DNA from: Caballeronia turbans
GTDB lineage: Bacteria > Pseudomonadota > Gammaproteobacteria > Burkholderiales > Burkholderiaceae
DNA: 64,000 bases
Reading direction: 5' to 3'
NCBI GenBank assembly: GCA_001544655.2
Contig: FCOD02000009.1
Location: 124,001-188,000 of the forward strand
Shown here: piece by piece, positions 10,753 through 32,498 of the stretch
Layout of the letters: each line of letters starts with the position of its first letter
Numbering within the stretch: the first letter of the stretch is position 1
The notes under the pieces: model-generated
Told to the model about the DNA's origin: nothing
Databases searched by the model: none
Seen by the model: the letters and a program-made list of their open reading frames with translations, nothing else
Position numbers and translations under genes: made by a program

Positions 10753-11682
10753 CTACAACGCCTGCGTGAGCTGCGGTATCGCTTCGAACAAGTCGCCGAC
10801 CAGTCCGTAATCCGCGACACTAAAAATGGGCGCTTCAGCATCCTTGTTGACGGCAACGATGACCTTCGAGTCCTTCATGCCAGCCAGATGCTGAATCGCG
10901 CCCGAGATGCCGACCGCGACATACAACTGCGGCGCGACGATCTTTCCGGTCTGTCCGACCTGCCAGTCGTTCGGTGCGAAGCCCGAATCGACGGCCGCCC
11001 GCGAAGCCCCCACCGCCGCCCCGAGCTTTTGCGCAAGCGAATCGAGAAGCGCGAAATTTTCCGCACTGCCCATACCGCGGCCGCCCGACACGACGATGCG
11101 CGCCGACGTGAGCTCGGGCCGCTCGCTCACCGGGACCTCGCGGCGCACGAAACGCGCACGCTGCGTCCCTGCAACAGCCGCCTTCGTGTCGACAGGCGCC
11201 GGCGCACTCGCCGAAGGTGCGGCATCGAAGGCAGTGGTTCGAATCGTCAAGACCTTGATCGCGTCATCGCATCGCACGGTGGCGATCGCATTGCCAGCAT
11301 AGATCGGGCGGTCGAACGTATCGGCATCGTGAATGGCGATCACATCGGAAATCTGCGACGCATCGAGATTCGCGGCCACGCGCGGCGCGACGTTCTTCCC
11401 CGCCGCCGTGGCCGGAAAAAGCACATGCGTGTAGGACGTCGCAAGCATCAGCACCTGTGCTGCGATGTTTTCCGCGAGACCGTCCGCAAGATGCGGCGCA
11501 TCCACGAGAACGACACGGTCCACGCCTTCGATGATGCGCGCGGCATCCGCCGCACCGCGCGCATCGTGACCTGCAACCAGCACGTGCACACCGTTGTTCA
11601 ACTGGCGCGCCGCGCTGATGGTATTGAGCGTGGCCGCCTTGAGCCGCGCGCCTTCGTGGTCGGCAATGACGAGAGTGGTCAT
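10753..11682 (-). CDS. etfA: Electron transfer flavoprotein subunit alpha
   Basis: This 309-residue EtfA binds FAD with EtfB and carries electrons from flavin dehydrogenases to ETF:ubiquinone oxidoreductase. The C-terminal FAD domain shows [14 protein letters not shown], a loop with [25 protein letters not shown], the [22 protein letters not shown] segment (split by conserved contacts) and [20 protein letters not shown]. It directly abuts etfB with no gap. The pair sits at the end of an operon with a sarcosine-oxidase-like flavoprotein, so it probably accepts electrons from amine demethylation as well as from general dehydrogenases. Confidence 0.95.
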
Positions 11683-12432
11683 TCAGATTACCTTCGCTTC
11701 ATTCTTGAGCTTGTCGATCAACGCCGCGACGTCGTTCACGCGGCCCCCCGCCTTGCGCGCCGCCGGCTCGACGACCTTGAGCGTCTTCAGGCGTGCAGAA
11801 GCATCGACGCCCAGATCCGCAGGGCTCCATGTCTCGATCGGCTTCTTCTTCGCCTTCATGATGCTGGGCAGCGTGACGTAGCGCGGCTCGTTCAGGCGCA
11901 AATCCGTCGTGACGATGGCAGGCAACGTAAGCTCGAGGACTTCGAGACCGCCATCCACTTCACGCGTGACCGTGGCGGTATTCGCGCCGATCCGGATGTT
12001 GCTGGCGAATGTCGCCTGCGGCCAGTCGAGCAACGCAGCGAGCAGTTGGCCCGTCTGGCCCGCATCGTCGTCGATGGCCTGCTTGCCGAGAATCACCAGT
12101 TGCGGCTGTTCACGTTCGACAGCCGCCTTCAGCAACTTGGCGACCGCGAGAGGCTGCAATTCGACGTCCGTCAGGATGTGGACGCCGCGATCCGCACCGA
12201 TGGCAAGCGCCGTGCGCAGCGTCTCCGTGCTCTGCGCCGGACCGCATGTCACCGCGATAACCTCGCTGGCGTGACCGCCTTCCTTCAGGCGCGTGGCCGC
12301 TTCGACGGCGATCTCGTCGAACGGATTCATCGACATCTTCACGTTGCTCGTCTCGACACCGCTCTGATCCGCTTTCACGCGGACGTTCACGTTGTAGTCG
12401 ACGACACGCTTCACTGCGGCCATGATCTTCAT
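11683..12432 (-). CDS. etfB: Electron transfer flavoprotein subunit beta
   Basis: This 249-residue EtfB begins [17 protein letters not shown], the usual N-terminus, which fixes the start at ATG 12432 rather than the longer open frame. It carries [18 protein letters not shown], the EtfB signature around [18 protein letters not shown], and the C-terminal KKKPIETW segment that contacts dehydrogenase partners. An AGGGAA ribosome site is present. It forms the heterodimer with EtfA and binds AMP. It follows hutD by 23 bp in the operon. Confidence 0.95.
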
Positions 12433-12455
12433 GGTTGCGTTCCCTGGTTCGAATC

Positions 12456-13052
12456 TCAAGAGCGAGGGTCAATGAACTCGATGACGACGAGCGCAGCCTG
12501 CGAGCCGCGATGCGGCGCGAGATGAAGCGGCGGTCCTCGTTCGCCGCGCAATAAGACATGCGCGGCATCGAGCGTGGCCTCGAAGCCTTCGACGGCGAAC
12601 GTGCATTCCGCCTCGATCGTCAACGCGACTACGAAGCATCCCGATGGCACGGTCATCGTTTCAGTCAGCGGCCGGATACTCGCGCGACAGACGCCACGCG
12701 CAGCCATCGCATTGAGGGCGAGCACCGGTCCATCGTGCAAGGTGGCGTCCCATGCCGCATCGCCGTCGTAATCCGCGACGGCTCCGCTGCTCAGGCGACA
12801 TTGCACATCTCCATGGCGTAGCGTGACGCCCGCGCCTTGCATGACGAGCGACAAACGCGTCATGCCCGCAAAGCGCGAATAAGGCCCGTCACGCACGACC
12901 GTTGCGAGGCTGATGCGCCACGCGCCATCCTGGTCGTAAGCGAGGGGCCGCGTCGTTCCGCCGCCGTTGCGCCAGGGCTGCGTCTCGAACGACGTCAACG
13001 CCCGGACTTCGATGCCGTCCGGCACGCGCGCTTCAGGACACTGCGCCGACAC
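12456..13052 (-). CDS. hutD: HutD/Ves family protein
   Basis: This is a 198-residue cupin-like protein with the HutD/Ves signature [13 protein letters not shown] followed by WRISLATV and the beta-barrel core. HutD is found in histidine utilisation clusters, where it has been proposed to bind formiminoglutamate and limit pathway flux; no enzymatic activity is firmly established. Here it overlaps the preceding flavoprotein gene by 20 bp and precedes etfB. The hutH, hutU and hutI genes are not in the window, so a role in N-methylated amine catabolism is equally possible. Confidence 0.8.
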
Positions 13053-14220: not shown

Positions 14221-14335
14221 TGTTGCGCTTCCTTTCTCATGCGGATCATGGACGCAGTGTGCCGCGCCAGTTGCACTTCGCCCTCGTCATAAGAGAAACC
14301 GATGCTGAGCAGAAGCAGCGATGCATACCGCGGAT

Positions 14336-15121
14336 TCACGCGGCGCCTTCGAGGCCCTTCATGACTTCGGCCTGCACGGTTTCCCAGATCGACTTCTTCA
14401 TCTCCAGATACGCAGGCGAAAGCTGCACTTCGGCCGTGCGCGGCAACGGCAAATCGTTGCGGATATCCTGCACGATGCGTCCCGGCTTCGCGCCCATCAC
14501 GATCATGCGCGTGGAGAGCATCAGTGCCTCGTCGATGGAATGCGTGATGAAGACGATGGTCTTGCCGCTCTTTTCATAGAGCGAAAGCAGTTGTTCCTGA
14601 AGCACTTGCCGCGTCATGGCATCGAGCGCGGCGAAAGGCTCGTCGAGCAGCATCACGTCCGGGTCGTTGGCGAGCACACGCGCGATCGACACGCGCTGCT
14701 TCATGCCGCCCGACAACTTGCCGGGATAGCTGTCCTCGAAGCCCTTCAGACCCACCGCTTCGATATGACGCCGCGCCGCCTCGCGCCTTTGCGCCTTGCC
14801 CATGCCGCGCATCTTCAGGCCGAACGCGACGTTCTCGCTCACCGTTTTCCACGGAAACAGCGCGTACTGCTGGAACACCATGCCGCATGCCGGCTCGACA
14901 TCCTTCACGACCTTGTTGTTGACGAGCACGCGGCCCTGCGTCGGCTGCTCGAAGCCGGAGATCATGTTGAGCATCGTCGATTTGCCGCAGCCCGATGCGC
15001 CGAGCAGCACGAGAAACTCGCCTTTTGCGATGTCGAGATCGACCTCCCTCAGTACCTGCAACGGGCCGTAGCTCTTCGCGACGCCTTCGAGCCGGATCAT
15101 CGGATGGTTCATCGTTGCCAT
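14336..15121 (-). CDS. ABC transporter ATPase, SsuB/TauB/NitT type
   Basis: This is a 261-residue nucleotide-binding subunit of a nitrate/sulfonate/taurine-type importer. Walker A is GASGCGKSTML, the signature is LSGGMKQRVSIARVLA, Walker B is DVMLLDEPFAALD, and the switch His is in IVFITHSIDEA. The start is taken at ATG 15121, which has a CGGAG ribosome site. ATG 15112 overlaps the permease stop as ATGA and is the alternative. It energises uptake with the permease and binding protein upstream. The open reading frame extends much further upstream, but that part is out of frame with the permease and not coding. Confidence 0.9.
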   Translation of the reverse strand: MATMNHPMIRLEGVAKSYGPLQVLREVDLDIAKGEFLVLLGASGCGKSTMLNMISGFEQPTQGRVLVNNKVVKDVEPACGMVFQQYALFPWKTVSENVAFGLKMRGMGKAQRREAARRHIEAVGLKGFEDSYPGKLSGGMKQRVSIARVLANDPDVMLLDEPFAALDAMTRQVLQEQLLSLYEKSGKTIVFITHSIDEALMLSTRMIVMGAKPGRIVQDIRNDLPLPRTAEVQLSPAYLEMKKSIWETVQAEVMKGLEGAA

Positions 15122-15876
15122 GACAGCACTCCGCGTTCGATGAGCCGGAACACGGCATCCGTAACGAGCACCGTGATGCTGATGAGCACCATGCCGAGCA
15201 CGACGGTATCGGTCTGGAAGAACTCGCGTCCGTTCATGATCATGAAGCCGAGACCCTGTTGCGCGGCGACGAGTTCCGCCGAGATCACGCAGGTCCACGA
15301 GAGGCCGAGAATCACCTTCATGCCCGACAGAATCTGCGGGATGCAGCCGGGCAGAATGACTTCGAACATGACCTGCCAGCGATTCGCGCCGAGATTGCGC
15401 GCCGCACGGATGAAGATCGGATCGATGTTGCGCGTGGCGTCGATCACATACAGAAGCGCGGGCGCGAACGAGCCCATGAACACGATGCTGTACTTCTGCG
15501 TCTCGGTGATGCCGAACCACAGCAGCGACAGCGGAATCCAGCTCATCGACGGCAGCGGGCGCAGAAACGACAGCAGCGGATCGAATACCGCCCGCGCCAC
15601 GCGCGAGGTGCCGAGCATGATGCCGAGCGGAATCGAAACGACCGCGGCCGCGAAGAAGCCGACCATCACGCGACGTGTGGACGCGAGCACGTTGTCGAGC
15701 AGCGCATGCTGATTCCACATGCGGATGCCGCGCGCCAGCACCTGCGATGGCGCGGGCAGAAAGACCGCATCGACCAGCCCGGCACGGCATACGAGTTCCC
15801 ACAGCAGCAGGAAGCCGATCAGCGAGCACGCGCTCACGACGAGCAGGCCGCCCCTCCATTTGCGATTCGATGCCAT
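15109..15876 (-). CDS. ABC transporter permease, SsuC/TauC type
   Basis: This 255-residue membrane subunit has about six TM helices and the cytoplasmic EAA loop (IFIRAARNLGANRWQV followed by VILPGCIPQILSGM) that docks to the ATPase. The family transports sulfonates, nitrate or nitrogen-containing metabolites such as pyrimidine precursors. It starts 10 bp after the binding-protein stop, and its stop overlaps the ATPase start region. Confidence 0.9.
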   Translation of the reverse strand: MASNRKWRGGLLVVSACSLIGFLLLWELVCRAGLVDAVFLPAPSQVLARGIRMWNQHALLDNVLASTRRVMVGFFAAAVVSIPLGIMLGTSRVARAVFDPLLSFLRPLPSMSWIPLSLLWFGITETQKYSIVFMGSFAPALLYVIDATRNIDPIFIRAARNLGANRWQVMFEVILPGCIPQILSGMKVILGLSWTCVISAELVAAQQGLGFMIMNGREFFQTDTVVLGMVLISITVLVTDAVFRLIERGVLSWQR

Positions 15877-17059: not shown

Positions 17060-18061
17060 TCATGCTGCGCCTTGCGCGTCGAAGTCGTGCGCATAGGCGT
17101 CGAACAGTTCGGCGGGCATGCCGGGCAGGGCGGCGTGCAAGCCCGGCGCGATCACCTCGCGCGCCACCGCAATGGACTCGCGCGACACCGCATCGGCCAT
17201 CGCGGACCATTCGGAGCGGCGCGTGAGAATGTAGAAGTGGCGATGCCCGATGCGCGTTGCGGGCAGCGGAACGACAGTCACGTCCGGCAGATGCGCGCGC
17301 GACTGCCACAAACAAAGCGGCGACGTGATCGCGCAGCCGAAGCCGGACGCGACGAGACTGAGCAGCGGATCGGTGGCATCGAATTCGTAGCGGTTCGGTG
17401 CATGGAAGTTCATGTGCTTGACGAGCCGCTCGACCTGTTGCCCGATCAGCGAGCGGCCCGTGTAGCGCAACAGCGGCAGTTCGCGCGCGACGTCGTGGAA
17501 ATCGCGCAGCTTGCGGCCTGCGCCGAATTTTTTCGGCGCGACGGCGATGAAGGTCTCCGAGAACAGCGGGCGCAATTCCACACGCCGCGGATCGAGCGTG
17601 GCTTCCGTGCAGATGGCGAGATCGAGTTCGCGATTGGCGAGCTGCTCGCTGAGCGTCGGCGTGAGGCCGGACCACATCGAAAGCGTCTTCATGCGATCGG
17701 ACAGGCGCTGCACGAGATGCGGCCCGACGCTGGCGGCGAACGAATCCACGCAGCCGATGCGCAGGCTCGGCACGCCTTCGCTGGTTGCTGTGCGCACGTT
17801 ATGCGAGACCGCCTGCGCATGTTCGAGCAGCCCGCCCGCCTGTTCGAGCAGGATGCGGCCCGCCGCGTTGGGCCGCACCGGCCGGAACTCGCGATCGAAT
17901 AACGCCACGCCCTGTTCGCGCTCCAGTGCGGCGATGAGCTGGCTCACCGCGCTCTGCGTGACGCCAAGCACACGCGCGGCTTCGGTCATCGAACGCGTCT
18001 CGCAGACTGCGACGAACGCCTGCAACGCACGCAGGTCCACCCCGACGAATGTATTTCGCAT
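17060..18061 (-). CDS. LysR-family regulator (paralogue of the one at 30681)
   Basis: This 333-residue LTTR has its N-terminal winged helix at DLRALQAFVAVCETRSMTEA and the recognition part VTQSAVSQLIAALEREQG, followed by a periplasmic-binding-protein-like effector domain. Its effector domain shares long blocks with the second LysR at 30681-31661 (CVDSFAA, SGLTP, FDATDPLLSLV, PLCLWQ), so the two are paralogues and probably sense related ligands. It is upstream of and co-directional with the SsuABC-like importer. Divergent transcription with the GlxA-type gene leaves 188 bp for promoters. Confidence 0.9.
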   Translation of the reverse strand: MRNTFVGVDLRALQAFVAVCETRSMTEAARVLGVTQSAVSQLIAALEREQGVALFDREFRPVRPNAAGRILLEQAGGLLEHAQAVSHNVRTATSEGVPSLRIGCVDSFAASVGPHLVQRLSDRMKTLSMWSGLTPTLSEQLANRELDLAICTEATLDPRRVELRPLFSETFIAVAPKKFGAGRKLRDFHDVARELPLLRYTGRSLIGQQVERLVKHMNFHAPNRYEFDATDPLLSLVASGFGCAITSPLCLWQSRAHLPDVTVVPLPATRIGHRHFYILTRRSEWSAMADAVSRESIAVAREVIAPGLHAALPGMPAELFDAYAHDFDAQGAA

Positions 18062-19205: not shown

Positions 19206-20399
19206 TTATGCCGCTTCGAGCTCCGGCGCTGCGGCTCGCAGCGGCAACGGCAGCCAGCCTTGCAGCTCGCGCCAGTTCGGTTCCAGGTGCGCAAAGCGCG
19301 AAAGCGACAGCGACGAGAGATCCGCGAACGCGCATCGCCCGTCCACCACGAGATCGCGGATCGCGTGGCCGCTCGCCGGCGACAGCCCGAAACCCACGCT
19401 CGATAACGTCGCGACCGTCACGTTGCCCTGCGCATCGGGGCGATCGATCACGGGCCGTCCATCCGGCGTGTTCTCGATGTAACCCGCCCAGCTGCGGATG
19501 ACCTTCGCATGCGCGGCCTTCGGCAGCAGCGCCGCGAGCCGCGCCGCGATGCTGCATTGAAGCGGCGTCGAATGCGGACGCACCTTCGGCACGTCGTCGA
19601 GACCGATCCATTCGTGCGGACCGCCGCCGTACGCGAGGTTGCCGCGCAGCGTCTGCCGCCCGTACAGGCCGTTGCCGTCGACGCCGCCGAGCGGCATCTG
19701 CGGAAGCGGTTCGGTGACGATCATCTCCGCGCGCGCCGCCGCGAGCGGCACGTCGATGCCGAGTTGTGCGGCAAGCACGCCCGTATGCGGTCCGGCCGCG
19801 ATTACGAGGTGATCGCAGGCAAAGTCTCCGCTGGACGTCTTCACCGCGCTGACGCGTCCGCCTTGCGTGACGAAACCCGTCACCGGCGTATGCTGCAGGA
19901 TGCGTGCGCCGTGATCCTCCATCGCCCATGCATAAGCCTGCAAGGTGCGATGCGGATTCGCATGCCCGCCGAAGTGATAAAAATAGCCGGCATGCACGTT
20001 GTCGCCCGCGAGCGGCACGAGCTCGCGCACCTGCTTCGCATCGAGCACGTCGGAGCGCAGGCCGTGATGCGCCCCGTTCTCCAGCGCACGCCGATACAGC
20101 CGGAACTGATGTTCGTCGAGCGCAATGCGGATGCGCTCGCGGCAAAATTCGGTCGGATAGCCGAGCAGTTCGTCCATCATCGGCCAGAGGCGCTGTTCTT
20201 CCATGAAGAGCGGGCTGTGATGATGCGAGCAGCCGCCGCCGTTGCGCCCCGACGCGCCCCAGCCGATCATGCCCGCTTCGAGCACCAGCACGTCGATGCC
20301 TTCGCGCGCGAGCCACCATCCCGCGGAGAGGCCCGTCACGCCGCCGCCGACGATGACGACCGATGCGCCCTTGATATTGCCTGCTGCCAACGTGTTCAT
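19206..20399 (-). CDS. FAD-dependent amine/imino acid oxidoreductase (DAO family)
   Basis: This 397-residue DAO-family flavoprotein has VVIVGGGVTGLSAGWWLA for the ADP moiety and IGWGASGRNGGGCS for the second FAD contact, then the C-terminal SVGFGLSPASGHAI. It resembles the HcnC/D-hydroxyproline dehydrogenase beta and glycine/sarcosine oxidase subunits. The gene immediately upstream encodes an HcnB-like flavoprotein, and the HcnB-HcnC type of pairing suggests a membrane- or ETF-linked heteromeric amine dehydrogenase. It is the last gene of the 11-kb minus-strand operon that begins at 30381. Confidence 0.85.
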   Translation of the reverse strand: MNTLAAGNIKGASVVIVGGGVTGLSAGWWLAREGIDVLVLEAGMIGWGASGRNGGGCSHHHSPLFMEEQRLWPMMDELLGYPTEFCRERIRIALDEHQFRLYRRALENGAHHGLRSDVLDAKQVRELVPLAGDNVHAGYFYHFGGHANPHRTLQAYAWAMEDHGARILQHTPVTGFVTQGGRVSAVKTSSGDFACDHLVIAAGPHTGVLAAQLGIDVPLAAARAEMIVTEPLPQMPLGGVDGNGLYGRQTLRGNLAYGGGPHEWIGLDDVPKVRPHSTPLQCSIAARLAALLPKAAHAKVIRSWAGYIENTPDGRPVIDRPDAQGNVTVATLSSVGFGLSPASGHAIRDLVVDGRCAFADLSSLSLSRFAHLEPNWRELQGWLPLPLRAAAPELEAA

Positions 20400-23507: not shown

Positions 23508-24583
23508 CGGAAGGCGATTTCGACGTCGGTGGAGGGGCGGCTGGAGCACGCGAGAATCCAGCCTTGCGATTCCTCGGCTGCCGACAAACCGCCCGCGTGG
23601 TGCATCGATACTTCGCCGGACACGCGGCGCACCTTGCAGGTGCCGCACATGCCGCTCGCGCAGCCGCACGGAATCACGACCTGCTGACGCGTCGCCGCGA
23701 CGAGCAGCGTTTCGCCCGCGTGCACCTGGAAGCGCTTGTCGCCGAGGGTGGCGTGATGAACCACGCCGTGCATTTCTTCGGGCAAGGAGGTTGCATCGTG
23801 TTCGGGTGCCGCGCAAGGCGAAGGCCCGAAATGCTCGATATGAAACGCCGCGCGTCGCGCGCCTTCGGCTGCATGAATCTGCCGGATGCTCTGCATGAAA
23901 CCCGCAGGCCCGCAGCAATACACCGTGCGCCGCCCGAAGTCCGGCGTCATCGCCCAGAGCGTGCCGCGCGAGATGCGCCCGCGCAAGCCGAACCATCCCG
24001 GCGCGGGCGCGCTCAGCCACACGCTGACCTTGAGGTTCGGCATGCGCGACTGAAGCGTCGCGAGTTCGCTGGCGAAGAGGATGTCGTCGGCGTTGCGCGC
24101 GCAATGCAGCCATGCGACGTCGGCATCCGGCCTGCGGAGCGCGAGCGTGCGCAGCATCGACATGAGCGGCGATGCGCCCGATCCCGCCGACACGAGCGCA
24201 AGCGGCGTCGCGTTCGATGGATCGAGCGTGAAGCGGCCGAGCGGATAGCGCGCGTCGATCCGCATTCCCGGCGCGCAGCGCTCGTGCAGCCAGCGCGTCA
24301 CCACACCATGCGCCTGCGCCTTGATGGTCAGTTCGATCACGTCGCGCTCGACGGGCGACGATGCGATGGAAAACATTCGGTCATGACGCACGCCGTCGAT
24401 GTTCAGCGCGAGCAGCATCGCCTGACCCGGCGCGAAGAGGCGCACGCCGTCGGGATGCGGATCTCGCAGGCGAAAAGTCTTGACGCCCGGCGCTTCGTCG
24501 CGCACGGCGATGCATTCGAGCGTGCGCGCTTGCGCTTCATCGAAAGCGTGGGCGCTTTCCGCGTCGATCAGCACATCAGCCAT
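23504..24583 (-). CDS. Ferredoxin-NAD(P) reductase of a Rieske oxygenase (GbcB-like)
   Basis: This 359-residue reductase has an FAD domain (HDRMFSIASSP), an NAD(P) domain (VSAGSGASPLMSML and YCCGPAGFM) and a C-terminal plant-type [2Fe-2S] ferredoxin with CGCASGMCGTCK plus a distal Cys. It passes electrons from NAD(P)H to the Rieske oxygenase encoded just upstream; the two genes overlap by 8 bp. Domain order and partner match the glycine betaine monooxygenase reductase and stachydrine demethylase reductases. The low-potential electrons are used for O2-dependent N-demethylation. Confidence 0.88.
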   Translation of the reverse strand: MADVLIDAESAHAFDEAQARTLECIAVRDEAPGVKTFRLRDPHPDGVRLFAPGQAMLLALNIDGVRHDRMFSIASSPVERDVIELTIKAQAHGVVTRWLHERCAPGMRIDARYPLGRFTLDPSNATPLALVSAGSGASPLMSMLRTLALRRPDADVAWLHCARNADDILFASELATLQSRMPNLKVSVWLSAPAPGWFGLRGRISRGTLWAMTPDFGRRTVYCCGPAGFMQSIRQIHAAEGARRAAFHIEHFGPSPCAAPEHDATSLPEEMHGVVHHATLGDKRFQVHAGETLLVAATRQQVVIPCGCASGMCGTCKVRRVSGEVSMHHAGGLSAAEESQGWILACSSRPSTDVEIAFR

Positions 24584-25835
24584 TCGACACCTTCAGCTCG
24601 AACGAACGATGCGCAAGCGCGCTATCGAGATGAGTCGACAGCTTGTTCGCATACCAGTTGGTGAAGTTGCGCAGCATGAATTCGGACGGCGCATACGGCC
24701 CCGGCGTATAAGCGATCGATCCGACGCCGAGTTGATTGTTGGCCGCGAGCCGCGCGTCCTGCGTGTTGGTCGCGTTCCACACGGAGGTCAGCTTGTCGAT
24801 GTCGTAATCGACGCCTTCCACCGCGTCTTCGTGCACGAGCCAGGTCGTGCGCAGCACCGTGCGCGACGCCGACAGCGGCAGGATGCGGAAATGGATGATG
24901 TGATCCGCGAGAAAGTGATTCCAGTTGTTCGGCACGCGGAACATGCGCACGGAGCCGAGATCCGGTTCGGTGAGATCGCCGAGCAGCTTGCCGCATGCAG
25001 GCGATCCATCCGGCGTGAACGACACCGCGCCGCGATGAAACGGCAAGCGAATGCAGCGGAACTCGTCGCCGCCATCGGCGGGCAGATGCGGCAGGCCGTG
25101 ACGTTCCCACTTCGCGGCTTGCGCGTCCATCAGCAGGCGGAAGTCGCGCGAGCCGGCGGGATCGTCGGGCAATGCGAATTCGACCAGCGTCGCGAGCAGT
25201 TCCGGATGATTTCCCGCGCAGTGATAGCACTCGCGATTGTTTTCGATGACGAGCTTCCAGTTCGCGTCCTCGATCATCGTCGAGACGGCGGCGACCTTGG
25301 TACGCCACGGCTGATGCGGCGCGATGTACGGCGTCACGGCATCGCGAAAGCGGGCGATGTCGGGCGGCGTATCCGCGAGGCAGATGTAGACCATGCCGCA
25401 CACGATTCCGACATGCACGGGACGCAGCCCATACGCTTCGCGCTCGAAGCCTGCGGGCATCTGCCGCGCATGCAGCAGCGAGCCGTCGAGCTCATAGACC
25501 CATTGGTGATAAGCACACGTCAGCCGATGCGCATGCCCCTTTTCGTCGAGACAGATGCGCGAGCCGCGATGACGGCACGTATTGAAAAATGCGCGAATCT
25601 CGCCGTCCTCGTCGCGTAACACGATGACCGAAGTCGCACCGATTTCGAGCGTCAGATAGTCGCCCGGCTCGCGCAACTCGCAGCTATTGCACGCGAACAG
25701 CCACTCGTTGTTGAAGACGGCGTCGATATCGAGTCGATGAAACGCTTCGTCGGTATAGAACGGCTGCGGCAGCGAGAAGTTGTCGCGGCGTTGCGCGAGG
25801 GCGGCGCGCACGCGCGTCGGGTCGATCATCGTCAT
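24576..25835 (-). CDS. Rieske non-haem iron oxygenase, quaternary amine demethylase type (GbcA/Stc2-like)
   Basis: This 419-residue alpha-type oxygenase has a Rieske cluster motif CRHRGSRICL ... CAYHQW, with two Cys and two His ligands, and the mononuclear Fe site in IENNRECYHCAGNHPE. The spacing and the ECYHC motif are those of the glycine betaine/stachydrine/carnitine oxygenase branch, which hydroxylates an N-methyl group so that formaldehyde leaves. There is no small beta subunit gene. It sits between the reductase and an amidohydrolase in an operon with an OpuC-type betaine importer, so a quaternary ammonium substrate is likely. Which one is not determined. Confidence 0.88.
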   Translation of the reverse strand: MTMIDPTRVRAALAQRRDNFSLPQPFYTDEAFHRLDIDAVFNNEWLFACNSCELREPGDYLTLEIGATSVIVLRDEDGEIRAFFNTCRHRGSRICLDEKGHAHRLTCAYHQWVYELDGSLLHARQMPAGFEREAYGLRPVHVGIVCGMVYICLADTPPDIARFRDAVTPYIAPHQPWRTKVAAVSTMIEDANWKLVIENNRECYHCAGNHPELLATLVEFALPDDPAGSRDFRLLMDAQAAKWERHGLPHLPADGGDEFRCIRLPFHRGAVSFTPDGSPACGKLLGDLTEPDLGSVRMFRVPNNWNHFLADHIIHFRILPLSASRTVLRTTWLVHEDAVEGVDYDIDKLTSVWNATNTQDARLAANNQLGVGSIAYTPGPYAPSEFMLRNFTNWYANKLSTHLDSALAHRSFELKVSNG

Positions 25836-25914: not shown

Positions 25915-26787
25915 TCACGAAACCGACACGATGTCGTTTCCGGACCCGCGCTGCGCCAGAATCGTGTCGATGGCGCGGGCGTCGCGCACCGTCGGCAGGT
26001 CGAAACGCGCGTTGCGCACGGCGCCGTAGTCGAGCGCCGCGATCACGAGCTCCTCGCGTGCCGACTCGCTCTGCGCGAGGATCTCGCCACGCGGGCCGAC
26101 GATGCGCGAGCCGCCCCAGAATTGCAGCGTGCCTTCCCGTCCGACGCGATTGGCGAACACGATCGGCAGGCCATAGACGAGCGCGTGAGCCCGCAACACG
26201 GTGTCCCAGCCGCGCGGGTTGTCGAATTCTGTGCCGACGGCTTCGACGGCCGAACTGACCGGCGCGGCGCACAAGGTCGCGCCGTCGCGCGCCAGGCGAT
26301 GCATCAGCGCGGGGCTCCACAGGTCGGCGCAGATCGGCGTCGCGACGCGCCAGCGCGGATCGTCCGGCATCGGGAACTGGTCGAGGCACTCGCCGTGTCC
26401 GTAGTACTTGCCGTCGTCGAGCTTTCCGTAGGTCGCCAGCGCGATCTTCCGATGCACCTGCGCCACGCGCCCCGCATGCAGCGTCGCGACGCTGTTGTAG
26501 AACGACGCGCCCGGCGCCTCCTCGATGAAACCGACCACGGCGCACAGCGACGTACAGCAGCGCGCGAGTTCGAGCAGCGTCTCGTCGTCGCGCGTGATGG
26601 CGAGCTTCAGCGCGTGCTCACCCGCGCCATGCCCCACGAGCGACAACTCGGGAAACACGAGCAAACGCACGCCGCGCGCCGCGGCTTCTTCGATCACCCG
26701 CCGATGCGCCGCGGCATTCGCCGCGAGATCGCCGACGACCGTCTCGACCTGCGCGGCCGCGACGAGCAAGGGTTGCGTCGCGCGCAT
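25915..26787 (-). CDS. Carbon-nitrogen hydrolase (nitrilase superfamily)
   Basis: This 290-residue hydrolase has the Glu-Lys-Cys triad: Glu in LVFPELSLVGHG, Lys in VHRKIALATYG and Cys in TPICADLWSPALM. The family cleaves amides, carbamoyl amines or nitriles in the cytoplasm. It starts 3 bp after the OpuC-like binding protein gene and precedes the Rieske oxygenase by 79 bp, so it belongs to the amine operon. It may remove an amide or N-carbamoyl/formyl group from a pathway intermediate. It lacks a glutaminase/NAD synthetase fusion, and the substrate cannot be assigned. Confidence 0.85.
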   Translation of the reverse strand: MRATQPLLVAAAQVETVVGDLAANAAAHRRVIEEAAARGVRLLVFPELSLVGHGAGEHALKLAITRDDETLLELARCCTSLCAVVGFIEEAPGASFYNSVATLHAGRVAQVHRKIALATYGKLDDGKYYGHGECLDQFPMPDDPRWRVATPICADLWSPALMHRLARDGATLCAAPVSSAVEAVGTEFDNPRGWDTVLRAHALVYGLPIVFANRVGREGTLQFWGGSRIVGPRGEILAQSESAREELVIAALDYGAVRNARFDLPTVRDARAIDTILAQRGSGNDIVSVS

Positions 26788-26790
26788 GGA

Positions 26791-27714
26791 TCAGAGCAGG
26801 CCGGCCGACTTGAGGAACGCGCTCGATACGTCGCCGAGCGACTTCTTCTGGACGTCGACTTCGGCGTTCAGGCGCGCCATCGTTGCGTCGTCGAGCTTGG
26901 CGGACAGCGCGTTCAGGACGCCCGCGAGATTCGGGTTGGCGTCGAGTGTCGCCTTGCGCGCGACCGGCGTCAGCGCATACGCCGGGAAGAAGTTCTTGTC
27001 GTCGCGCAGCACGATGAAGTCGAACGCGGGCACGCGGCCATCGGTCGTGAAGACGAGCGCGGTATCGACCTGACGATCCTTCAGCGCCTGATACGTGAGG
27101 CCCGAATCCATCCGCTTGATCTGCGCCGGCCCGAAGTGGAAGCCATATTCCTTCTCGAGCGGACGCAGACCGTCGGGCCGCGCGTAGAACTCGGAATTGC
27201 ACGCGAAGGTCAGCTCCTTGCCGCCGTTGAGCACCTTCGCGAGATCGCTGAGCGTGGCGATGCCGAGTTTTTGCGCGACGTCGCGGTTCATCGCGAGGCC
27301 GTACGTATCGTTCGCCTTCGACGGATCGAGCCAGACGAGACCCTTCTGCGCGTCGAGTTCCTTCACGCGCGCATAGGTCTGCTGCGGATCGAGCTTGTCG
27401 GTCACCTTGTTATAGGTGATCAGCGACGTGCCGGTGTATTCCCAGTACACGTCCACTTGTCCGTTCTCCTGCGCCTGACGCAGCACCGTGCTGCCCATGC
27501 CGTCCTTCTTCACGACCGTGAAGCCCTTCGCCTGCAGCAGTTGCGTGGTCATCTCCGCGAGCAGCACCTGCTCGGTGAAGTTTTTCCCGCCGACGGTTAT
27601 GGTCGATGCAGCCCGCGCGGACTGACCGACGCCCAGCGCGCCGACGGCGAGCGTGAACAAAGATGCGCCGAGCAGGCGCGACCACAGCTTGCGTGACAAT
27701 AGCGGCTTGAACAT
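26791..27714 (-). CDS. Quaternary-amine ABC transporter substrate-binding protein (OpuCC/OsmF-like)
   Basis: This 307-residue periplasmic binding protein has an N-terminal signal peptide ending near GQSARAAST. It then shows TITVGGKNFTEQVLLAEM, VYWEYTGTSLITY and the C-terminal lobe of the OpuAC/OpuC family, which binds glycine betaine, carnitine, choline or proline betaine in an aromatic cage. ATG 27714 is preferred over a TTG at 27741. It is encoded last of the four transporter genes, 23 bp downstream of the second permease gene. It is the clearest pointer to a quaternary ammonium substrate for the island. Confidence 0.88.
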   Translation of the reverse strand: MFKPLLSRKLWSRLLGASLFTLAVGALGVGQSARAASTITVGGKNFTEQVLLAEMTTQLLQAKGFTVVKKDGMGSTVLRQAQENGQVDVYWEYTGTSLITYNKVTDKLDPQQTYARVKELDAQKGLVWLDPSKANDTYGLAMNRDVAQKLGIATLSDLAKVLNGGKELTFACNSEFYARPDGLRPLEKEYGFHFGPAQIKRMDSGLTYQALKDRQVDTALVFTTDGRVPAFDFIVLRDDKNFFPAYALTPVARKATLDANPNLAGVLNALSAKLDDATMARLNAEVDVQKKSLGDVSSAFLKSAGLL

Positions 27715-27737
27715 GGGCTTCGGTTCCCCGAGAAGGA

Positions 27738-28454
27738 TCAACGTTGAGGACTGACGCCGCGCGGCACCAGCCAGTGCTGAAGCTGCGCGACGAACAGATC
27801 GGTGGCGACCGCGAGCAGGGCGGTCGGGATGGCGCCGGCAAGCAACATCGAAAAATCATTCAGGTCGATGCCGGTAAAGATAAGTTCGCCGAGTCCGCCG
27901 CCGCCGACGAGAAACGCCAGCGGCGCGGTGCCCACGGTGATCGCGAGCGCGGTGCGTACGCCCGCGAGGATCACGAACATCGCGTTGGGCAGTTCGACCT
28001 TGCGGAGAATCTGCCATTGCGTCATGCCGATGCCGTTGGCCGCTTCGATCAGCGCGGGCGGCACGGCGCGGATGCCTTCGTAGGTGTTCATCGCGATGGG
28101 CAGCAGCGTGGCGAGCCACAGCGCGAGAATCGCGGGCTTCGCGCCGATGCCGAACGCGCTCATCGCGAGCGCGAGAATCGCGAGTTTCGGCACTGCCTGA
28201 CCTGCGTTGAGCGCGAACATCACGAACTGTGCGGCGCGGCCGTTCGCCGGGCGGCTCAGCCAGATGCCGACCGGCACCGCGACGACGATCGCCGCAACGC
28301 CTGCGATCAGCACCATCAGCATTTGCTGGCCGGCCTGATACACGATGTCCGCGCGATACTGGCCGATCGACGCGAACCAGTTGTCCGCATGCGCCGATGC
28401 GCTGAGCACTGCCGTCAGCGAGCCGGTAGCGATGCGGGCGGCGCGTCCGTTCAT
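27738..28454 (-). CDS. ABC permease, OpuC/ProW type (second)
   Basis: This is a 238-residue integral membrane permease with an EAA loop LIEAANGIGMTQWQILRKVE, preceded by VPKLAILALAM and followed by LAFLVGGGGLGELIFTG. These are typical of OpuCB/OpuCD and YehW/YehY-like betaine importers. ATG 28454 overlaps the ATPase stop as ATGA, so the two are translationally coupled. The N-terminus includes a periplasmic or signal-like segment before the first TM helix. It pairs with the permease at 29638-30381. Confidence 0.88.
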   Translation of the reverse strand: MNGRAARIATGSLTAVLSASAHADNWFASIGQYRADIVYQAGQQMLMVLIAGVAAIVVAVPVGIWLSRPANGRAAQFVMFALNAGQAVPKLAILALAMSAFGIGAKPAILALWLATLLPIAMNTYEGIRAVPPALIEAANGIGMTQWQILRKVELPNAMFVILAGVRTALAITVGTAPLAFLVGGGGLGELIFTGIDLNDFSMLLAGAIPTALLAVATDLFVAQLQHWLVPRGVSPQR

Positions 28455-29641
28455 CGCGCACCTCCGAGCACGAGCGCGGGTTCGGGCGCATCGGGCGTGG
28501 CAGCGGGAACATGCGGCGACGCCTCGCCCGACGCGCACGCCGCGCGCGCCATCAGCGCGATGCGTTCGTGCGTCACATAACCGATGAAGCGCCCGTCGGC
28601 ATCGACGCCCGGCAGCCACGTCGCGCCGTGCGCGAGCAGCATCGACATGACGGAGCGCAGGTCGTCGGTCGCACGTGCCAGGGCAGGCAGCGGGCGCAGT
28701 TGCGCGGCTTCGAGCGTGGCACCGCCAGCGGCGAGTTCCATCGAACCGATATGACCCACGGGCTTGTCTTGCGCATCGAGCACGACGAGCGTGTCGGCCA
28801 GGTGATCGCGCAGCAGCGCACGCGCATCCGCGCTCGAAAAGCCCAAACGCGCGACGCGTGCCGGTTCCAGCGCCGCATCGGCTGCGCGCATCAGGCGAAG
28901 GCGCTTCAATGCGCGGTCGGCGCCGACGAAATCCGCGACGAACGCGCTTGCCGGGCGCGCCAGCAGCTCGTCCGGGCTCGCCATCTGCTCTATCTTGCCG
29001 TCGCGAAAGATGGCCACCTTGTCGCCCATCTTCATCGCCTCGTCGATGTCGTGGCTCACGAACATCACGGTCTTTCTCAGGCTCTTCTGGATGTGGCGGA
29101 ATTCGTCCTGAATCGACGTGCGGTTGATCGGATCGATCGCGCCGAACGGCTCGTCCATCAGCATCACCGGCGGATCGGCGGCGAGCGCCCGCGCCACGCC
29201 GACGCGCTGCTGCTGTCCGCCTGACAGATCGCGCGGATAGCACGGCATGAAGGTCGCCGGATCGAGCGATACCATCGCCAGCAGTGTTTCCGTGCGCTCG
29301 CGGATGCGCGCCTTGTCCCAGCCGAGCATCTGCGGCACGAGCGCGATGTTTTCCGCCACCGTCATGTTCGGGAAGAGGCCGACCTGCTGGATCGCATAGC
29401 CGATGCGCCGCCGCAGCTCGACGATGTCGAAGCCGGCCGTATCGACACCGCCGATCAGGATCTGGCCCGACGTCGGCTGCACGAGCCGGTTGATCATCTT
29501 GAGCGTCGTGGTCTTGCCGCAGCCGGACGGCCCGAGCAGCACGCACAGTTCGCCTTCTTCGACCGTCATCGAGATGTCGTCGACGACCGGCTTTGCGCCG
29601 CGCAACGCAAAGCGCTTGGTCAGGTTTCGAAGCTCGATCAT
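28451..29641 (-). CDS. ABC ATPase with CBS domains, OpuCA/ProV type
   Basis: This is a 396-residue nucleotide-binding subunit. Walker A is GPSGCGKTTTLKM, the signature is LSGGQQQRVGVARALA and Walker B is PVMLMDEPFGAID. After about residue 250 two CBS-like segments follow (LVVLDAQDKPVGHIGSMEL and PGVDADGRFIGYVTH). In OpuA-type systems these sense ionic strength or cyclic dinucleotides and gate transport. Start ATG 29641 overlaps the preceding permease stop (ATGA). The protein should drive betaine uptake with both permeases and the binding protein. Confidence 0.9.
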   Translation of the reverse strand: MIELRNLTKRFALRGAKPVVDDISMTVEEGELCVLLGPSGCGKTTTLKMINRLVQPTSGQILIGGVDTAGFDIVELRRRIGYAIQQVGLFPNMTVAENIALVPQMLGWDKARIRERTETLLAMVSLDPATFMPCYPRDLSGGQQQRVGVARALAADPPVMLMDEPFGAIDPINRTSIQDEFRHIQKSLRKTVMFVSHDIDEAMKMGDKVAIFRDGKIEQMASPDELLARPASAFVADFVGADRALKRLRLMRAADAALEPARVARLGFSSADARALLRDHLADTLVVLDAQDKPVGHIGSMELAAGGATLEAAQLRPLPALARATDDLRSVMSMLLAHGATWLPGVDADGRFIGYVTHERIALMARAACASGEASPHVPAATPDAPEPALVLGGAR

Positions 29642-30381
29642 CGTCCCTCCGCCGGGGTGGCTGCCGCATTGACGAGAGGCGCCGCGAGCGGCGGCTGCAG
29701 CCCGCCGCGCCGCCAGAGGAAGCGCACCCGGCGCGGGCGCATGCCTTCCGGCGTAAGACGCCATTGCAGGGCGGCGAGGCCCAGATCGGCGAGGATCGCG
29801 AGCAGCGCGACGATCACCGCGCCCGCTACGAGCTGGCGCGGGTCCGACTGCGAGATGCCGCGGCTGATGAGCCGCCCGAGCCCGCCCGCGCCGATATACG
29901 TCGCGATCGCCGCGATACCGATGTTCATCACCACGGCCATGCGCACGCCCGCCATGATGATCGGCACGGCGATCGGCATTTCGACGCGATACAGCCGCTG
30001 CCACGGCGTCATCCCCATGCCGAGCGCGGCTTCGCGCAGAGCGGGGTCGAGGTTGCGGATCGCGGCGTAGGTGTTGCGCAGGATGGGCAACTGGGAATAG
30101 AGAAATAGCGCGATGGCGGCGGGCAGAAAGCCGATGCCCTGGCCGATCAGCGACAGCACCGGAATCAGCAGGCCGAAAAGCGCGATGGATGGAATCGTCA
30201 TCAGCATCGCGGCGGTGTAGAGCACGACGCGGGCGAGCCGCTCATCGAGCGTGATGACGATGCCGAGCGCGACGCCCGTCACGATCGCGCAGCCGACCCC
30301 GGCCAGCACGAGCAGCATGTGATCGACGAGCATATGCCCGATCGATGCCGCGTTATTCCAGATGAAAACCAGTGTATCCAC
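29638..30381 (-). CDS. ABC permease, OpuC/ProW type (first gene of operon)
   Basis: This is a 247-residue permease with the EAA loop LREAALGMGMTPWQRLYRVEMP, split by conserved Gly, and a typical IPSIALFGLLIP helix. The start is taken at GTG 30381, reading VDTLVFIWNN, because GGGAGGG lies about eight bases upstream. The open frame extends 40 codons further without a comparable ribosome site. It is the first gene of the 11-kb operon and is divergent from the second LysR gene; the shared 299-bp region contains a 25-bp palindrome. Confidence 0.87.
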   Translation of the reverse strand: MDTLVFIWNNAASIGHMLVDHMLLVLAGVGCAIVTGVALGIVITLDERLARVVLYTAAMLMTIPSIALFGLLIPVLSLIGQGIGFLPAAIALFLYSQLPILRNTYAAIRNLDPALREAALGMGMTPWQRLYRVEMPIAVPIIMAGVRMAVVMNIGIAAIATYIGAGGLGRLISRGISQSDPRQLVAGAVIVALLAILADLGLAALQWRLTPEGMRPRRVRFLWRRGGLQPPLAAPLVNAAATPAEGR

Positions 30382-30560: not shown

Positions 30561-30585
30561 CGTCATCGGCGGTTTGCTGATGACG
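30561..30585. promoter_or_regulatory. Palindrome CGTCATC-N11-GATGACG, candidate LysR operator
   Basis: Perfect 7-bp arms with an 11-base spacer lie in the divergent region between the OpuC-type permease gene and the LysR gene. The dyad is 95 bp upstream of the LysR start and 180 bp upstream of the permease start. Its half-sites ATC/GAT resemble those of LysR-type boxes. It is the strongest dyad seen in that region. Confidence 0.45.
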
Positions 30586-30680
30586 CCAGGGCCATCCCCC
30601 GAAAGGCGCATGATGAGCGCCGCGCCGCGCCGCGCCGCGGTTTCCAGATCCAATGCACCAGGCAGCATCACGGAGTCTCG

Positions 30681-31661
30681 ATGAGACGCACCCCATCACC
30701 GCTCGACCTGCGCGCGCTGCAGGCTTTCGTCGCCGTTTGCGAGACCGGCTCGATGACCGCGGCTGCACGCCGCCTTGGTTTGAGCCAGAGCGCGGTGAGC
30801 CAGTCGATCGCATCGCTCGAACGCGAGCAGGGCACGGCGCTGTTCGATCGCGACAGCCGTCCGCCGCGTCCGAACCGCGCCGGGCGCGCGCTGCTCGAAC
30901 TCGCGGGTCCGCTGCTCGATCACGCGCAGATGGTGAGCGCGCGCATCGGCGATGCGTCGCTTGCGGGCGCGTTGCCGTTGCGGCTCGGCTGTGTCGATTC
31001 CTTCGCGGCAACGGTCGGCCCTGAACTGATCCGCGCGATGTCCGGCTCGGCGCGGCAGATCTCGTTATGGTCGGGTTTGACGCCCGGCCTGTCGGCGCAG
31101 ATGCACGCGCGCGAAGTCGATGTCGTCGTCTGCACGCAGACCGCGTTGAATGACGCGCGCATCGTCGAAGTGCCGTTGTTTTCGGAGGCGTTCGTGGCCG
31201 TGGTATCGCGCCGCTGGCTCGAAGAGCGCGAGCCGCTTCGACACGATGCGTCGGCGTGGCGCACGCTCGCCGATGAGCTGCCGCTGATCCGCTATACCGC
31301 GCGCTCCGTCATCGGCCAGCAGGTCGATCGCTTCGCGCGGCATCTCGGCATCGAAAGCCCGCGCCGTTTCGAATTCGACGCAACCGATCCGCTGCTGAGC
31401 CTCGTCAGCGCGAAACTCGGTTTCGCCATTTCGACGCCCTTGTGTCTCTGGCAGGCGCGGCATTATCTCGACGCGATCGCCGTATTGCCGCTGCCCGAAG
31501 GACGTCTCGCGCGACGCGAGTTTTTCGTGCTGCATCGGCAAGGGGAATGGGACGATTTCGTCGATGAGACCGTCACGCTCACGCGCCGCGTGCTCGATCA
31601 CCTGATTCGTCCCGCACTCACGCGCGCCGTGCCGACGCTGCCGGACGATGCGCTGTTATGA
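30681..31661 (+). CDS. LysR-family regulator (paralogue of the one at 17060)
   Basis: This 326-residue LTTR is supported at ATG 30681 by CGGAG six bases upstream. The HTH is DLRALQAFVAVCETGSMTAA with LSQSAVSQSIASLEREQG. The effector domain shares FDATDPLLSLV, CVDSFAATVGP, SGLTPGLS and PLCLWQAR with the LysR at 17060-18061. It is divergent from the OpuC-type operon and is followed 39 bp later by hutG on the same strand. It probably controls both arms in response to a pathway metabolite. Confidence 0.9.
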   Translation: MRRTPSPLDLRALQAFVAVCETGSMTAAARRLGLSQSAVSQSIASLEREQGTALFDRDSRPPRPNRAGRALLELAGPLLDHAQMVSARIGDASLAGALPLRLGCVDSFAATVGPELIRAMSGSARQISLWSGLTPGLSAQMHAREVDVVVCTQTALNDARIVEVPLFSEAFVAVVSRRWLEEREPLRHDASAWRTLADELPLIRYTARSVIGQQVDRFARHLGIESPRRFEFDATDPLLSLVSAKLGFAISTPLCLWQARHYLDAIAVLPLPEGRLARREFFVLHRQGEWDDFVDETVTLTRRVLDHLIRPALTRAVPTLPDDALL

Positions 31662-31700
31662 CTTCCTTGTCGCAAACCACTTCACAATCGACATCATTCA

Positions 31701-32498
31701 ATGGACGATCTCTACACGCTCGAACGCGGCGATGGGCCGCTGCTGCTCTCGATCCCGCACCTCGGCACGATCATCCCCGACGATCTGCGCGACCGGTACA
31801 CGGATATCGCGCTGACGGTTGCCGACACCGACTGGCACCTCGACCGGCTCTATGCGTTCGCGCAGCAGCTCGGCGCAACGATCCTCGGCGCACGCATGTC
31901 GCGCTATGTGATCGATCTCAACCGGCCTTCGTCCGATGAAAGCCTTTATCCAGGGCAGACGACGACCGGCCTGTGCCCCGATCTGACGTTCCGTGGCGAG
32001 CCGGTGTACCGCGAAGGCTGCGTACCCGATGCCGCCGAAAAACAGCGTCGCGTCGCGAAGTACTGGAAGCCGTATCACGACAGGATCGTCGTCGAGCTTG
32101 CGCGCCTTCGCGAGCGGCACGCCAATGTGCTGCTGTGGGAAGCGCATTCGATTGCGAGCGTGTTGCCTCGTCTGTTCGACGGCAAGCTGCCGGACCTGAA
32201 CATCGGCACGCAGGATGGCCGCACGGCGGCGGCATCGGTGATGAAAGCCGTGACGGATGCGGCCGCGCGGAGCGATTACTCATGGATCGCGAACGGACGT
32301 TTCAAAGGCGGCTTCATCACGCGGAACTATGCGGCGCCGCAGGACGGGATTCACGCCGTGCAACTGGAGATGTGCCAGTCCGCCTACATGGACGAAGCAC
32401 CCCCGTTCGATTACCTGCCGGCAAAAGCCGAAGCGATCCAGCCGACGCTGCGCGATATGGTCGGCGGCGCGCTCGACGCTGTCGTGGCGTTGTCCTGA
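31701..32498 (+). CDS. hutG: N-formylglutamate deformylase family protein
   Basis: This is a 265-residue member of the N-formylglutamate amidohydrolase (FGase) family. Hallmarks are PLLLSIPHLGTIIPDDL at the N-terminus, DTDWHLDRLY, YVIDLNRPS and the C-terminal GIHAVQLEMCQSAYMDE. The metal-binding His and Glu residues typical of the family are present. HutG releases formate and glutamate in the last step of one histidine pathway. It stands next to the LysR regulator of the amine operon and without other hut enzymes, so it may instead deformylate an N-formyl intermediate of that pathway. The ribosome site at ATG 31701 is weak. Confidence 0.85.
   Translation: MDDLYTLERGDGPLLLSIPHLGTIIPDDLRDRYTDIALTVADTDWHLDRLYAFAQQLGATILGARMSRYVIDLNRPSSDESLYPGQTTTGLCPDLTFRGEPVYREGCVPDAAEKQRRVAKYWKPYHDRIVVELARLRERHANVLLWEAHSIASVLPRLFDGKLPDLNIGTQDGRTAAASVMKAVTDAAARSDYSWIANGRFKGGFITRNYAAPQDGIHAVQLEMCQSAYMDEAPPFDYLPAKAEAIQPTLRDMVGGALDAVVALS

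What the first reader, a model, noticed from the sequence alone, without database searches (positions are those of the whole stretch)
10753..32498. Large island for an unidentified quaternary or N-methylated amine
The sequence shows two blocks reading leftward. 30381-19206 holds an OpuC-type importer, a C-N hydrolase, a Rieske oxygenase with reductase, an MmgE/PrpD protein, an HcnB-like flavoprotein and a DAO flavoprotein, mostly with overlapping or near-abutting genes. 16909-10753 holds an SsuABC-like importer, a second DAO flavoprotein, HutD and EtfAB. Three regulators sit around them. GbcAB/Stc2-type Rieske oxygenases, DAO demethylases and OpuC importers are each known from betaine catabolism. 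The combination with PrpD, a nitrilase-fold enzyme, HutD and HutG matches no betaine pathway I can name, so the substrate may be new.
Basis: partly seen in the sequence, partly recalled or inferred. Interest (0 to 1): 0.75.

Follow-up and report, generated by a model that had tools for sequence, protein, structure and literature searches.

The report
Betaine catabolic island with exchangeable back-end
This stretch of a Caballeronia genome holds a conserved set of import and breakdown genes for a still unidentified betaine-like nutrient, and relatives keep a similar importer while swapping the breakdown chemistry, which narrows down what the nutrient could be.

Summary
The genes are real and at the stated places: OpuC-type importer, nitrilase-fold hydrolase, Rieske oxygenase plus GbcB-like reductase, MmgE/PrpD, HcnB-like and DAO flavoproteins; then SsuABC-like importer, second DAO, HutD, EtfBA; three regulators.

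Comparison shows what belongs together. The core (importer, hydrolase, Rieske/reductase, HcnB/DAO1, GbdR-like regulator) recurs in six Caballeronia-type genomes and four Paracoccus species; Ancylobacter has it without a close hydrolase. HutD and HutG are not core. In 11 of 17 Burkholderiaceae genomes with the hydrolase, importer, hydrolase and usually PrpD carry an acyl-CoA ligase/dehydrogenase/hydratase set instead of Rieske/DAO. Judged by one marker gene each, the sets exclude each other there; P. denitrificans and P. versutus hold parts of both.

The binding protein keeps the eight ProX ligand residues I recall (one Tyr is Phe), so a carboxylated quaternary amine is the likely ligand. The Rieske enzyme forms its own clade beside Stc2-type and glycine-betaine-type rows, and the genome has another, glycine-betaine-like operon. 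Best reading: import, amide-type hydrolysis and stepwise oxidative N-demethylation of an unidentified betaine. The substrate stays unknown.

The parts
29638..30381 (-). OpuC-type permease 1 (open frame runs to 30501; start uncertain)
   Evidence: PF00528 3.5e-23; 61-91% identical in the loci compared
28451..29641 (-). OpuC-type ATPase (ProV subfamily; start uncertain)
   Evidence: TIGR01186 320.9 bits, cut-off 326.6, in frame 28451-30004
27738..28460 (-). OpuC-type permease 2 (start uncertain)
   Evidence: PF00528 2e-24 in frame 27738-29669
26791..27741 (-). OpuAC-family betaine-binding protein with ProX-type aromatic cage and carboxylate-site residues (start at 27741 or 27714)
   Evidence: PF04069 230.7 bits; cage mapping
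25915..26787 (-). nitrilase-fold C-N hydrolase with Glu47/Lys114/Cys153 invariant
   Evidence: PF00795 127.9 bits; alignments of 12 and 14 rows
24576..25835 (-). GbcA/Stc2-family Rieske oxygenase of a separate clade
   Evidence: PF00848, PF00355; NF058607 521.3 bits, cut-off 670; tree
23504..24583 (-). GbcB-like reductase (FAD, NAD, 2Fe-2S)
   Evidence: PF00970, PF00175, PF00111; NF058606 225.8 bits, cut-off 500
22104..23480 (-). MmgE/PrpD family protein (start uncertain)
   Evidence: PF03972, PF19305; cis-aconitate decarboxylase and IDS-epimerase about 60 bits
20457..22085 (-). HcnB/SoxA-like FAD/NAD subunit with BFD-type 2Fe-2S region
   Evidence: PF07992 80.9 bits, PF04324 just under cut-off; SoxA 110.8 bits, cut-off 1164
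19206..20399 (-). DAO1, SoxB/HcnC-like FAD subunit specific to this cluster
   Evidence: PF01266 213.5 bits; 64-73% identity in clusters outside Burkholderiaceae, 36% in the next listed plasmid row
18220..19200 (+). GbdR-like GATase1/AraC regulator
   Evidence: NF052371 308.9 bits, cut-off 480
17060..18061 (-). LysR regulator 1
   Evidence: PF00126, PF03466
15887..17005 (-). accessory SsuA-like binding protein
   Evidence: TIGR01728 158.3 bits, cut-off 163.5
15109..15876 (-). accessory SsuC-like permease
   Evidence: PF00528
14336..15112 (-). accessory SsuB-like ATPase
   Evidence: PF00005
13033..14220 (-). DAO2, monomeric-sarcosine-oxidase/MTOX-like flavoprotein
   Evidence: PF01266 215.5 bits; NF008425 150.9 bits, cut-off 257
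12456..13052 (-). HutD-family protein, not core (2 of 6 type I loci)
   Evidence: PF05962 101.8 bits
11683..12459 (-). EtfB
   Evidence: PF01012
10753..11682 (-). EtfA
   Evidence: PF01012, PF00766
30702..31661 (+). LysR regulator 2 (start uncertain)
   Evidence: PF00126, PF03466 in frame 30372-31661; found in 6 of 6 type I loci
31701..32498 (+). HutG-like N-formylglutamate deformylase paralogue, not core (4 of 6 type I loci)
   Evidence: TIGR02017 344.3 bits, over cut-off 278.75

Best explanation
A dedicated import and catabolic island for a carboxylated quaternary ammonium compound (a betaine) that carries, or is bound through, a hydrolysable amide-type C-N bond. Proposed order: the OpuC importer brings it in (inferred from residues that are shown); the nitrilase-fold enzyme cleaves the C-N bond (inferred); the Rieske oxygenase with its reductase removes the first methyl group from the quaternary nitrogen as formaldehyde (inferred from family); HcnB/DAO1 removes the next and DAO2, passing electrons to EtfBA, the last (inferred); PrpD acts on the carbon backbone (step unknown). 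A GbdR-like activator and two LysR proteins regulate it (inferred). In 11 of 17 Burkholderiaceae genomes with the hydrolase a CoA-ligase/acyl-CoA-dehydrogenase/hydratase set stands in for the demethylation set behind a similar front end (gene exchange shown, equivalence of function inferred).
For: The binding protein keeps Lys13, Tyr63, Thr66, Tyr111, Glu145 and Arg149 of ProX (roles recalled) in 14 of 14 rows; Tyr190 is Phe in 13 of 14 (Gln in the S. meliloti row); the place of Tyr214 is Tyr in 14 of 14, mapped by eye. The hydrolase lies next to the importer in 17 of 17 Burkholderiaceae genomes with it and in 3 of 3 f20 genomes with it. The core recurs in P. denitrificans, P. versutus, P. alcaliphilus and P. 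yeei with Rieske 65-68%, DAO1 70-73%, binding protein 62-65% identical. In the plasmid collection DAO1 is 64-72% identical in the 12 top-ranked records (13 in the 60-80% band in all) and 36% in the next row. Rieske group of 10 rows 99/95 in a tree of 43. Back-ends: DAO1 in 6 of 6 type I and 0 of 11 type II genomes at E <= 1e-60; type II dehydrogenase in 0 of 6 type I genomes at E <= 1e-80.
Against: No substrate was identified. The hydrolase diverges faster (41-47% to Paracoccus) than Rieske or DAO1, and no close copy was found in the stretches read around the Ancylobacter and Novosphingobium sets, so it may serve another step. PrpD was not found in the stretches read of P. yeei, P. alcaliphilus, Shinella, 2 of 11 type II loci and the three f20 loci. 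The type II regulators are only 39-42% identical to the window's. The Rieske-clade member of G112 sits beside other transporters and a DAO; in the 30 kb taken there was no match to HcnB, the OpuC binding protein or permeases, only 28-29% ATPase matches. In two genomes of more distant classes (L059, L060) no importer match was found in the 20 kb read around the hydrolase. The hydrolase is sparse: 7 of 398 genomes of the phylum and 1 of 300 of the order, own included. Similar binding proteins need not bind the same ligand.
Confidence: 0.55

Rival explanations
1. It is a second pathway for a betaine already known (stachydrine, hydroxyproline betaine, carnitine, gamma-butyrobetaine) with accessory genes added.
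For: The best matches of the Rieske protein among solved structures are 4qup and 3vca (406 bits; that these are Stc2 is recalled), and its clade shares a 100/100 group with the Stc2-type rows in the tree (midpoint root). Type II carries a CoA ligase, acyl-CoA dehydrogenase and hydratase like the Cai set. The cage fits proline betaine and glycine betaine alike.
Against: The ten cluster rows group apart from the Stc2-type rows (99/95). The hydrolase next to the importer has no role in those pathways that I know of. The crotonobetainyl-CoA dehydrogenase model scores only 121 bits (cut-off 540) on the type II enzyme.
Confidence: 0.22
2. It is the glycine betaine/dimethylglycine pathway of this organism.
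For: The window Rieske is the closest match to the GbcA model in its genome (521 bits); the regulator is GbdR-like; EtfBA matches also stand beside the G051 Rieske gene, the best GbcA-model match of 120 family genomes.
Against: It misses the GbcA cut-off of 670 bits, but that test does not discriminate here, since none of 120 family genomes reaches it. The genome has another set on C36: a TMADH-type flavoprotein, an EtfA-like match, a Rieske protein of a clade found across the family, and a GbcB-like reductase. It resembles the Pseudomonas glycine betaine operon (recalled).
Confidence: 0.1
3. Hercynine (histidine betaine) or a related compound is demethylated to histidine and passed to the Hut pathway.
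For: HutG and HutD paralogues lie in the window, and a HutH-like gene lies near the importer in one f20 genome (L062); EgtUC shows that proteins of this family can bind ergothioneine (listed).
Against: HutD in 2 of 6 and HutG in 4 of 6 type I loci, no match to either in the plasmid loci compared; the CoA-ligase/dehydrogenase alternative and the hydrolase have no place in it.
Confidence: 0.05
4. The substrate is a man-made amidobetaine or betaine ester surfactant, cut by the hydrolase and then demethylated.
For: CocE/NonD hydrolases accompany the set in Ancylobacter (activated sludge) and Novosphingobium.
Against: The divergence between the copies in different classes looks far older than such compounds (inference).
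Confidence: 0.05

Closest known systems
Stc2/Stc4 stachydrine demethylase of Sinorhizobium meliloti
   Same: same Rieske family, ENNRECYHC..NH motif, paired reductase
   Different: 45% identity, separate group. The row is called Stc2 because the next gene is annotated Stc4; no nitrilase-type hydrolase, PrpD or DAO is annotated in the 17 kb read, from an incomplete gene table with an NAD(P)/FAD-dependent oxidoreductase cut at the edge
GbcAB glycine betaine monooxygenase operon
   Same: Rieske plus GbcB-like reductase, GbdR-like regulator, EtfBA
   Different: below the NCBIfam cut-offs, though no GbcA-model match in 120 family genomes reaches its cut-off; the genome has another such set on C36
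OpuC/ProX betaine importers
   Same: four-gene importer and cage residues
   Different: linked to a catabolic hydrolase; ligand unknown; Tyr190 is Phe
HcnB/HcnC-type, PH1363/PH1364-type and SoxA/SoxB-type dehydrogenases
   Same: HcnB/SoxA-like plus SoxB-like pair; DAO1 matches 1y56_B at 113.5 bits
   Different: a narrow branch; linkage to a Rieske gene was read in 7 of the 12 top-ranked plasmid records and in 6 Caballeronia-type genomes
CaiA/CaiC/CaiD-type betaine thioester pathway (type II loci)
   Same: CoA ligase, acyl-CoA dehydrogenase, enoyl-CoA hydratase behind an OpuC importer
   Different: dehydrogenase far below the crotonobetainyl-CoA dehydrogenase cut-off; plus hydrolase and usually PrpD

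Membership tests
OpuC/ProX-type betaine importer | OpuAC binding protein, two BPD permeases, ProV-type ATPase | tested here: met
   the ATPase scores 320.9 bits against TIGR01186, just under its cut-off of 326.6
OpuC/ProX-type betaine importer | aromatic cage and Lys/Arg/Thr carboxylate site of ProX (residue roles recalled) | tested here: met
   Tyr190 is Phe; Tyr214 mapped by eye
GbcA glycine betaine monooxygenase | NF058607 score of at least 670 bits | tested here: not met
   521.3 bits; but none of 120 family genomes passes, so the test is weak here
Stc2 stachydrine demethylase | falls inside the group of the Stc2-type rows | tested here: not met
   10 cluster rows group apart, 99/95; some rows have long branches
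Stc2/GbcA Rieske superfamily | CxH-CxxH Rieske motif and ENNRECYHC..NH iron site | tested here: met
   motif scan
Nitrilase superfamily | Glu-Lys-Cys triad (roles recalled) | tested here: met
   E47, K114, C153 invariant in 12 and in 14 rows
Nitrilase superfamily | amide or nitrile hydrolysis | not testable with these tools
   needs an enzyme assay
HutG N-formylglutamate deformylase | TIGR02017 cut-off | tested here: met
   344.3 against 278.75 bits, but not core
GbdR | NF052371 cut-off of 480 bits | tested here: not met
   308.9 bits

The most novel reading that the evidence does not exclude
The OpuC importer plus nitrilase-fold hydrolase is the front end of a sparsely scattered, unrecognised pathway for a betaine amide or similar onium acid, possibly with a three-carbon backbone like beta-alanine betaine, behind which bacteria use interchangeable chemistries: Rieske/DAO demethylation, CoA-thioester dehydrogenation and hydration, or (f20 genomes and a related Sinorhizobium importer cluster) a DddP-like M24 enzyme.
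Probability: 0.25. Interest if true: 0.7.

Novelty: new variant of a known kind. Interest (0 to 1): 0.5.

Why it matters
Betaines are important nitrogen and carbon sources in soil, rhizosphere and sea (general knowledge), and the importers in the records read here are annotated only as glycine betaine or betaine/proline/choline type. A conserved importer-hydrolase pair whose downstream genes are swapped between demethylation and thioester chemistry gives a handle on an unassigned betaine, with a related cluster in the laboratory organism Paracoccus denitrificans PD1222 (PDEN_RS24310 to RS24370) for direct testing.

Tried and rejected
Homarine was considered first because cleavage of its ring would give an N-formyl-N-methylglutamate suited to a HutG-type enzyme (own reasoning). 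It was set aside, not excluded: HutG and HutD are not core, a pyridine betaine does not obviously fit the CoA-ligase alternative, and the homarine paper is not held, so its genes could not be compared. Glycine betaine was ranked low because another glycine-betaine-like set exists on C36. The genome-contig scan with the hydrolase gave three close Caballeronia loci and two distant ones that were not used. The order-level search found no genome but the window's own in 300. Literature searches for PrpD/Rieske/betaine/nitrilase and Rieske/nitrilase/betaine/sarcosine/demethyl found no paper; one for Pden_484x-489x, a guess at the old locus tags of the Paracoccus cluster, found one unrelated mention.
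Full report
What is there. The window lies in a 7.35 Mb genome. Its nearest named relatives at this locus are Caballeronia grimmiae, C. temeraria and C. catudaia (87-88% identity of the hydrolase); by equal contig lengths these are G108, G232 and G139. Three regulators are present: two LysR proteins and one GbdR-like GATase1/AraC protein (308.9 bits, cut-off 480).

Which genes belong together. The hydrolase was found at E <= 1e-40 in 17 of 299 sampled Burkholderiaceae genomes, own included. Stretches around the other 16 were compared with window proteins by tblastn. Six of the 17 are type I: LysR2, OpuC (4 genes), hydrolase, Rieske, reductase, PrpD, HcnB, DAO1 and the GbdR-like gene in 6 of 6; DAO2 in 6 of 6; EtfBA in 5 of 6 (the G262 stretch ends before it); SsuABC in 5 of 6; HutG in 4 of 6; HutD in 2 of 6. 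Eleven are type II: a similar OpuC importer (binding protein 72-77%) and hydrolase (57-62%) in 11 of 11, a GbdR-like gene (39-42%) in 11 of 11, PrpD in 9 of 11, and an acyl-CoA dehydrogenase, AMP-forming ligase and enoyl-CoA hydratase in 11 of 11. The families of the type II genes were read in two loci, L041 and L047; the others were matched to L041 by tblastn. DAO1 was found in 6 of 6 type I and 0 of 11 type II genomes at E <= 1e-60, and the type II dehydrogenase in 0 of 6 type I genomes at E <= 1e-80. So within this family, judged by one marker each, the two back-ends replace each other behind one front end.

Outside the family. At phylum level the hydrolase profile matched 7 of 398 genomes, own included; at order level 1 of 300, the window's own. 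Of the other six, three belong to one family of the same class (f20) and three to more distant classes; of these three, two were read and showed no importer match in 20 kb, and the third (G534, two pieces at contig ends) was not read. Plasmid records gave annotated neighbours. P. alcaliphilus and P. yeei hold OpuC, hydrolase, Rieske, reductase, HcnB, DAO1 and GbdR-like genes without PrpD or the CoA genes in the stretches read; P. denitrificans PD1222 and P. versutus add the dehydrogenase, ligase and PrpD beside the same set. SsuABC-like genes there match the window's at only 24-40%. Ancylobacter has OpuC, PrpD, HcnB, DAO1, GbdR, Rieske and reductase, with only a 28% hydrolase by a second importer and a CocE hydrolase. 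Shinella has OpuC and hydrolase without the Rieske set in the 19 kb seen. Novosphingobium has Rieske (42%), HcnB (42%) and DAO1 (64%) with a cystathionine-gamma-synthase-like and a CocE gene.

A third context. In the three f20 genomes the importer and hydrolase are paired in 3 of 3. An M24 enzyme (DddP model 315 and 321 bits, cut-off 600, in the two scanned) and a HalD/PhyH-like oxygenase lie within about 6 kb of the hydrolase in two, and about 15 kb away in the third, where the M24 frame has one TGA. A malonate/methylmalonate-semialdehyde dehydrogenase stands between them in only 1 of 3. An M24 protein 63-66% identical sits with a related importer (binding protein 53-55%) in two Sinorhizobium plasmids, together with an MttB-type methyltransferase, an isochorismatase-family hydrolase, an enolase-superfamily protein and an Ldh-family dehydrogenase. 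These hints led to the three-carbon onium-acid idea in the novel case; they are thin.

What the importer binds. Mapping on A. fulgidus ProX (positions checked on the printed alignment; residue roles recalled) gives Lys53, Tyr102, Thr105, Tyr147, Glu184, Arg188, Phe231 and Tyr255 for Lys13, Tyr63, Thr66, Tyr111, Glu145, Arg149, Tyr190 and Tyr214. Seven of the eight are invariant in 14 of 14 rows and Phe231 in 13 of 14, the S. meliloti row having Gln (the last position was mapped by eye). That supports a quaternary ammonium group plus a carboxylate.

What the Rieske enzyme is. Its best solved relatives are 4qup and 3vca (406 bits; Stc2 by recall). In a tree of 43 rows the ten cluster rows from Caballeronia, G112, Paracoccus and Ancylobacter form one group (99/95); an Stc2 row (so named from its annotated Stc4 neighbour), three rows like it and the G051 row lie outside it, within a common 100/100 group. 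The program flagged long branches for several rows, among them G051, Cereibacter, Ancylobacter and Novosphingobium, and the last fell outside the ten-row group, so deep joins are unsure. The G051 row is taken as a glycine betaine type because EtfBA matches and frames of 1024 and 830 residues, sized like SoxA and DMGDH, surround it; that is inference. The genome has a second Rieske gene on C36, in a clade found across the family, beside a TMADH-type flavoprotein, an EtfA-like match and a GbcB-like reductase. That resembles the Pseudomonas-type glycine betaine operon (recalled), so the window island is probably not the glycine betaine pathway.

Mechanism. Shown: gene content, conserved linkage, cage residues, hydrolase triad, exchange of back-ends. 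Inferred: import, C-N bond hydrolysis, three oxidative demethylations (Rieske, HcnB/DAO1, DAO2 with EtfBA), and PrpD acting on the backbone. PrpD relatives in the PDB are cis-aconitate decarboxylase and IDS-epimerase at about 60 bits, which does not tell its reaction.

Literature. Ten searches ran. I saw their listings, and none showed a description of this cluster; the library holds only CC0, CC BY and CC BY-SA papers, so this is weak evidence of novelty. I saw passages of PMC12817926, PMC13390433, PMC3596328 and PMC9409073 only. The homarine paper (PMC13236597) is not held.

Noticed in passing
L133 (G000 C36, 1-16000): A second betaine-type set: TMADH-family flavoprotein, EtfA-like match, Rieske and GbcB-like reductase; probably the glycine betaine pathway of this genome.
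   Followed up: partly
L077 7281-8585; L061 5512-6795; L063 6901-8217: DddP-like M24 proteins well below the DddP cut-off, linked to OpuC-type importers in Sinorhizobium and in an unnamed family (f20) of the same class as the window's genome; possibly onium-compound enzymes other than DMSP lyase.
   Followed up: partly
L130 5543-17492: A Rieske gene 72% identical to the window's stands between an NCS1 permease and porin on one side and an amino acid permease, DAO, MFS and amidohydrolase on the other, with no match to the OpuC binding protein or HcnB in the 30 kb taken.
   Followed up: partly
window 33038-34375: An argininosuccinate synthase homologue beyond the HutG paralogue; not examined for being a second copy.
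   Followed up: no
L129 7862-15183: Novosphingobium plasmid with Rieske, HcnB, DAO1, a cystathionine-gamma-synthase-like and a CocE/NonD gene, with TonB receptors on both sides: another variant of the pathway.
   Followed up: partly
window 36092-39715: A 1207-residue open reading frame on the + strand, not identified.
   Followed up: no
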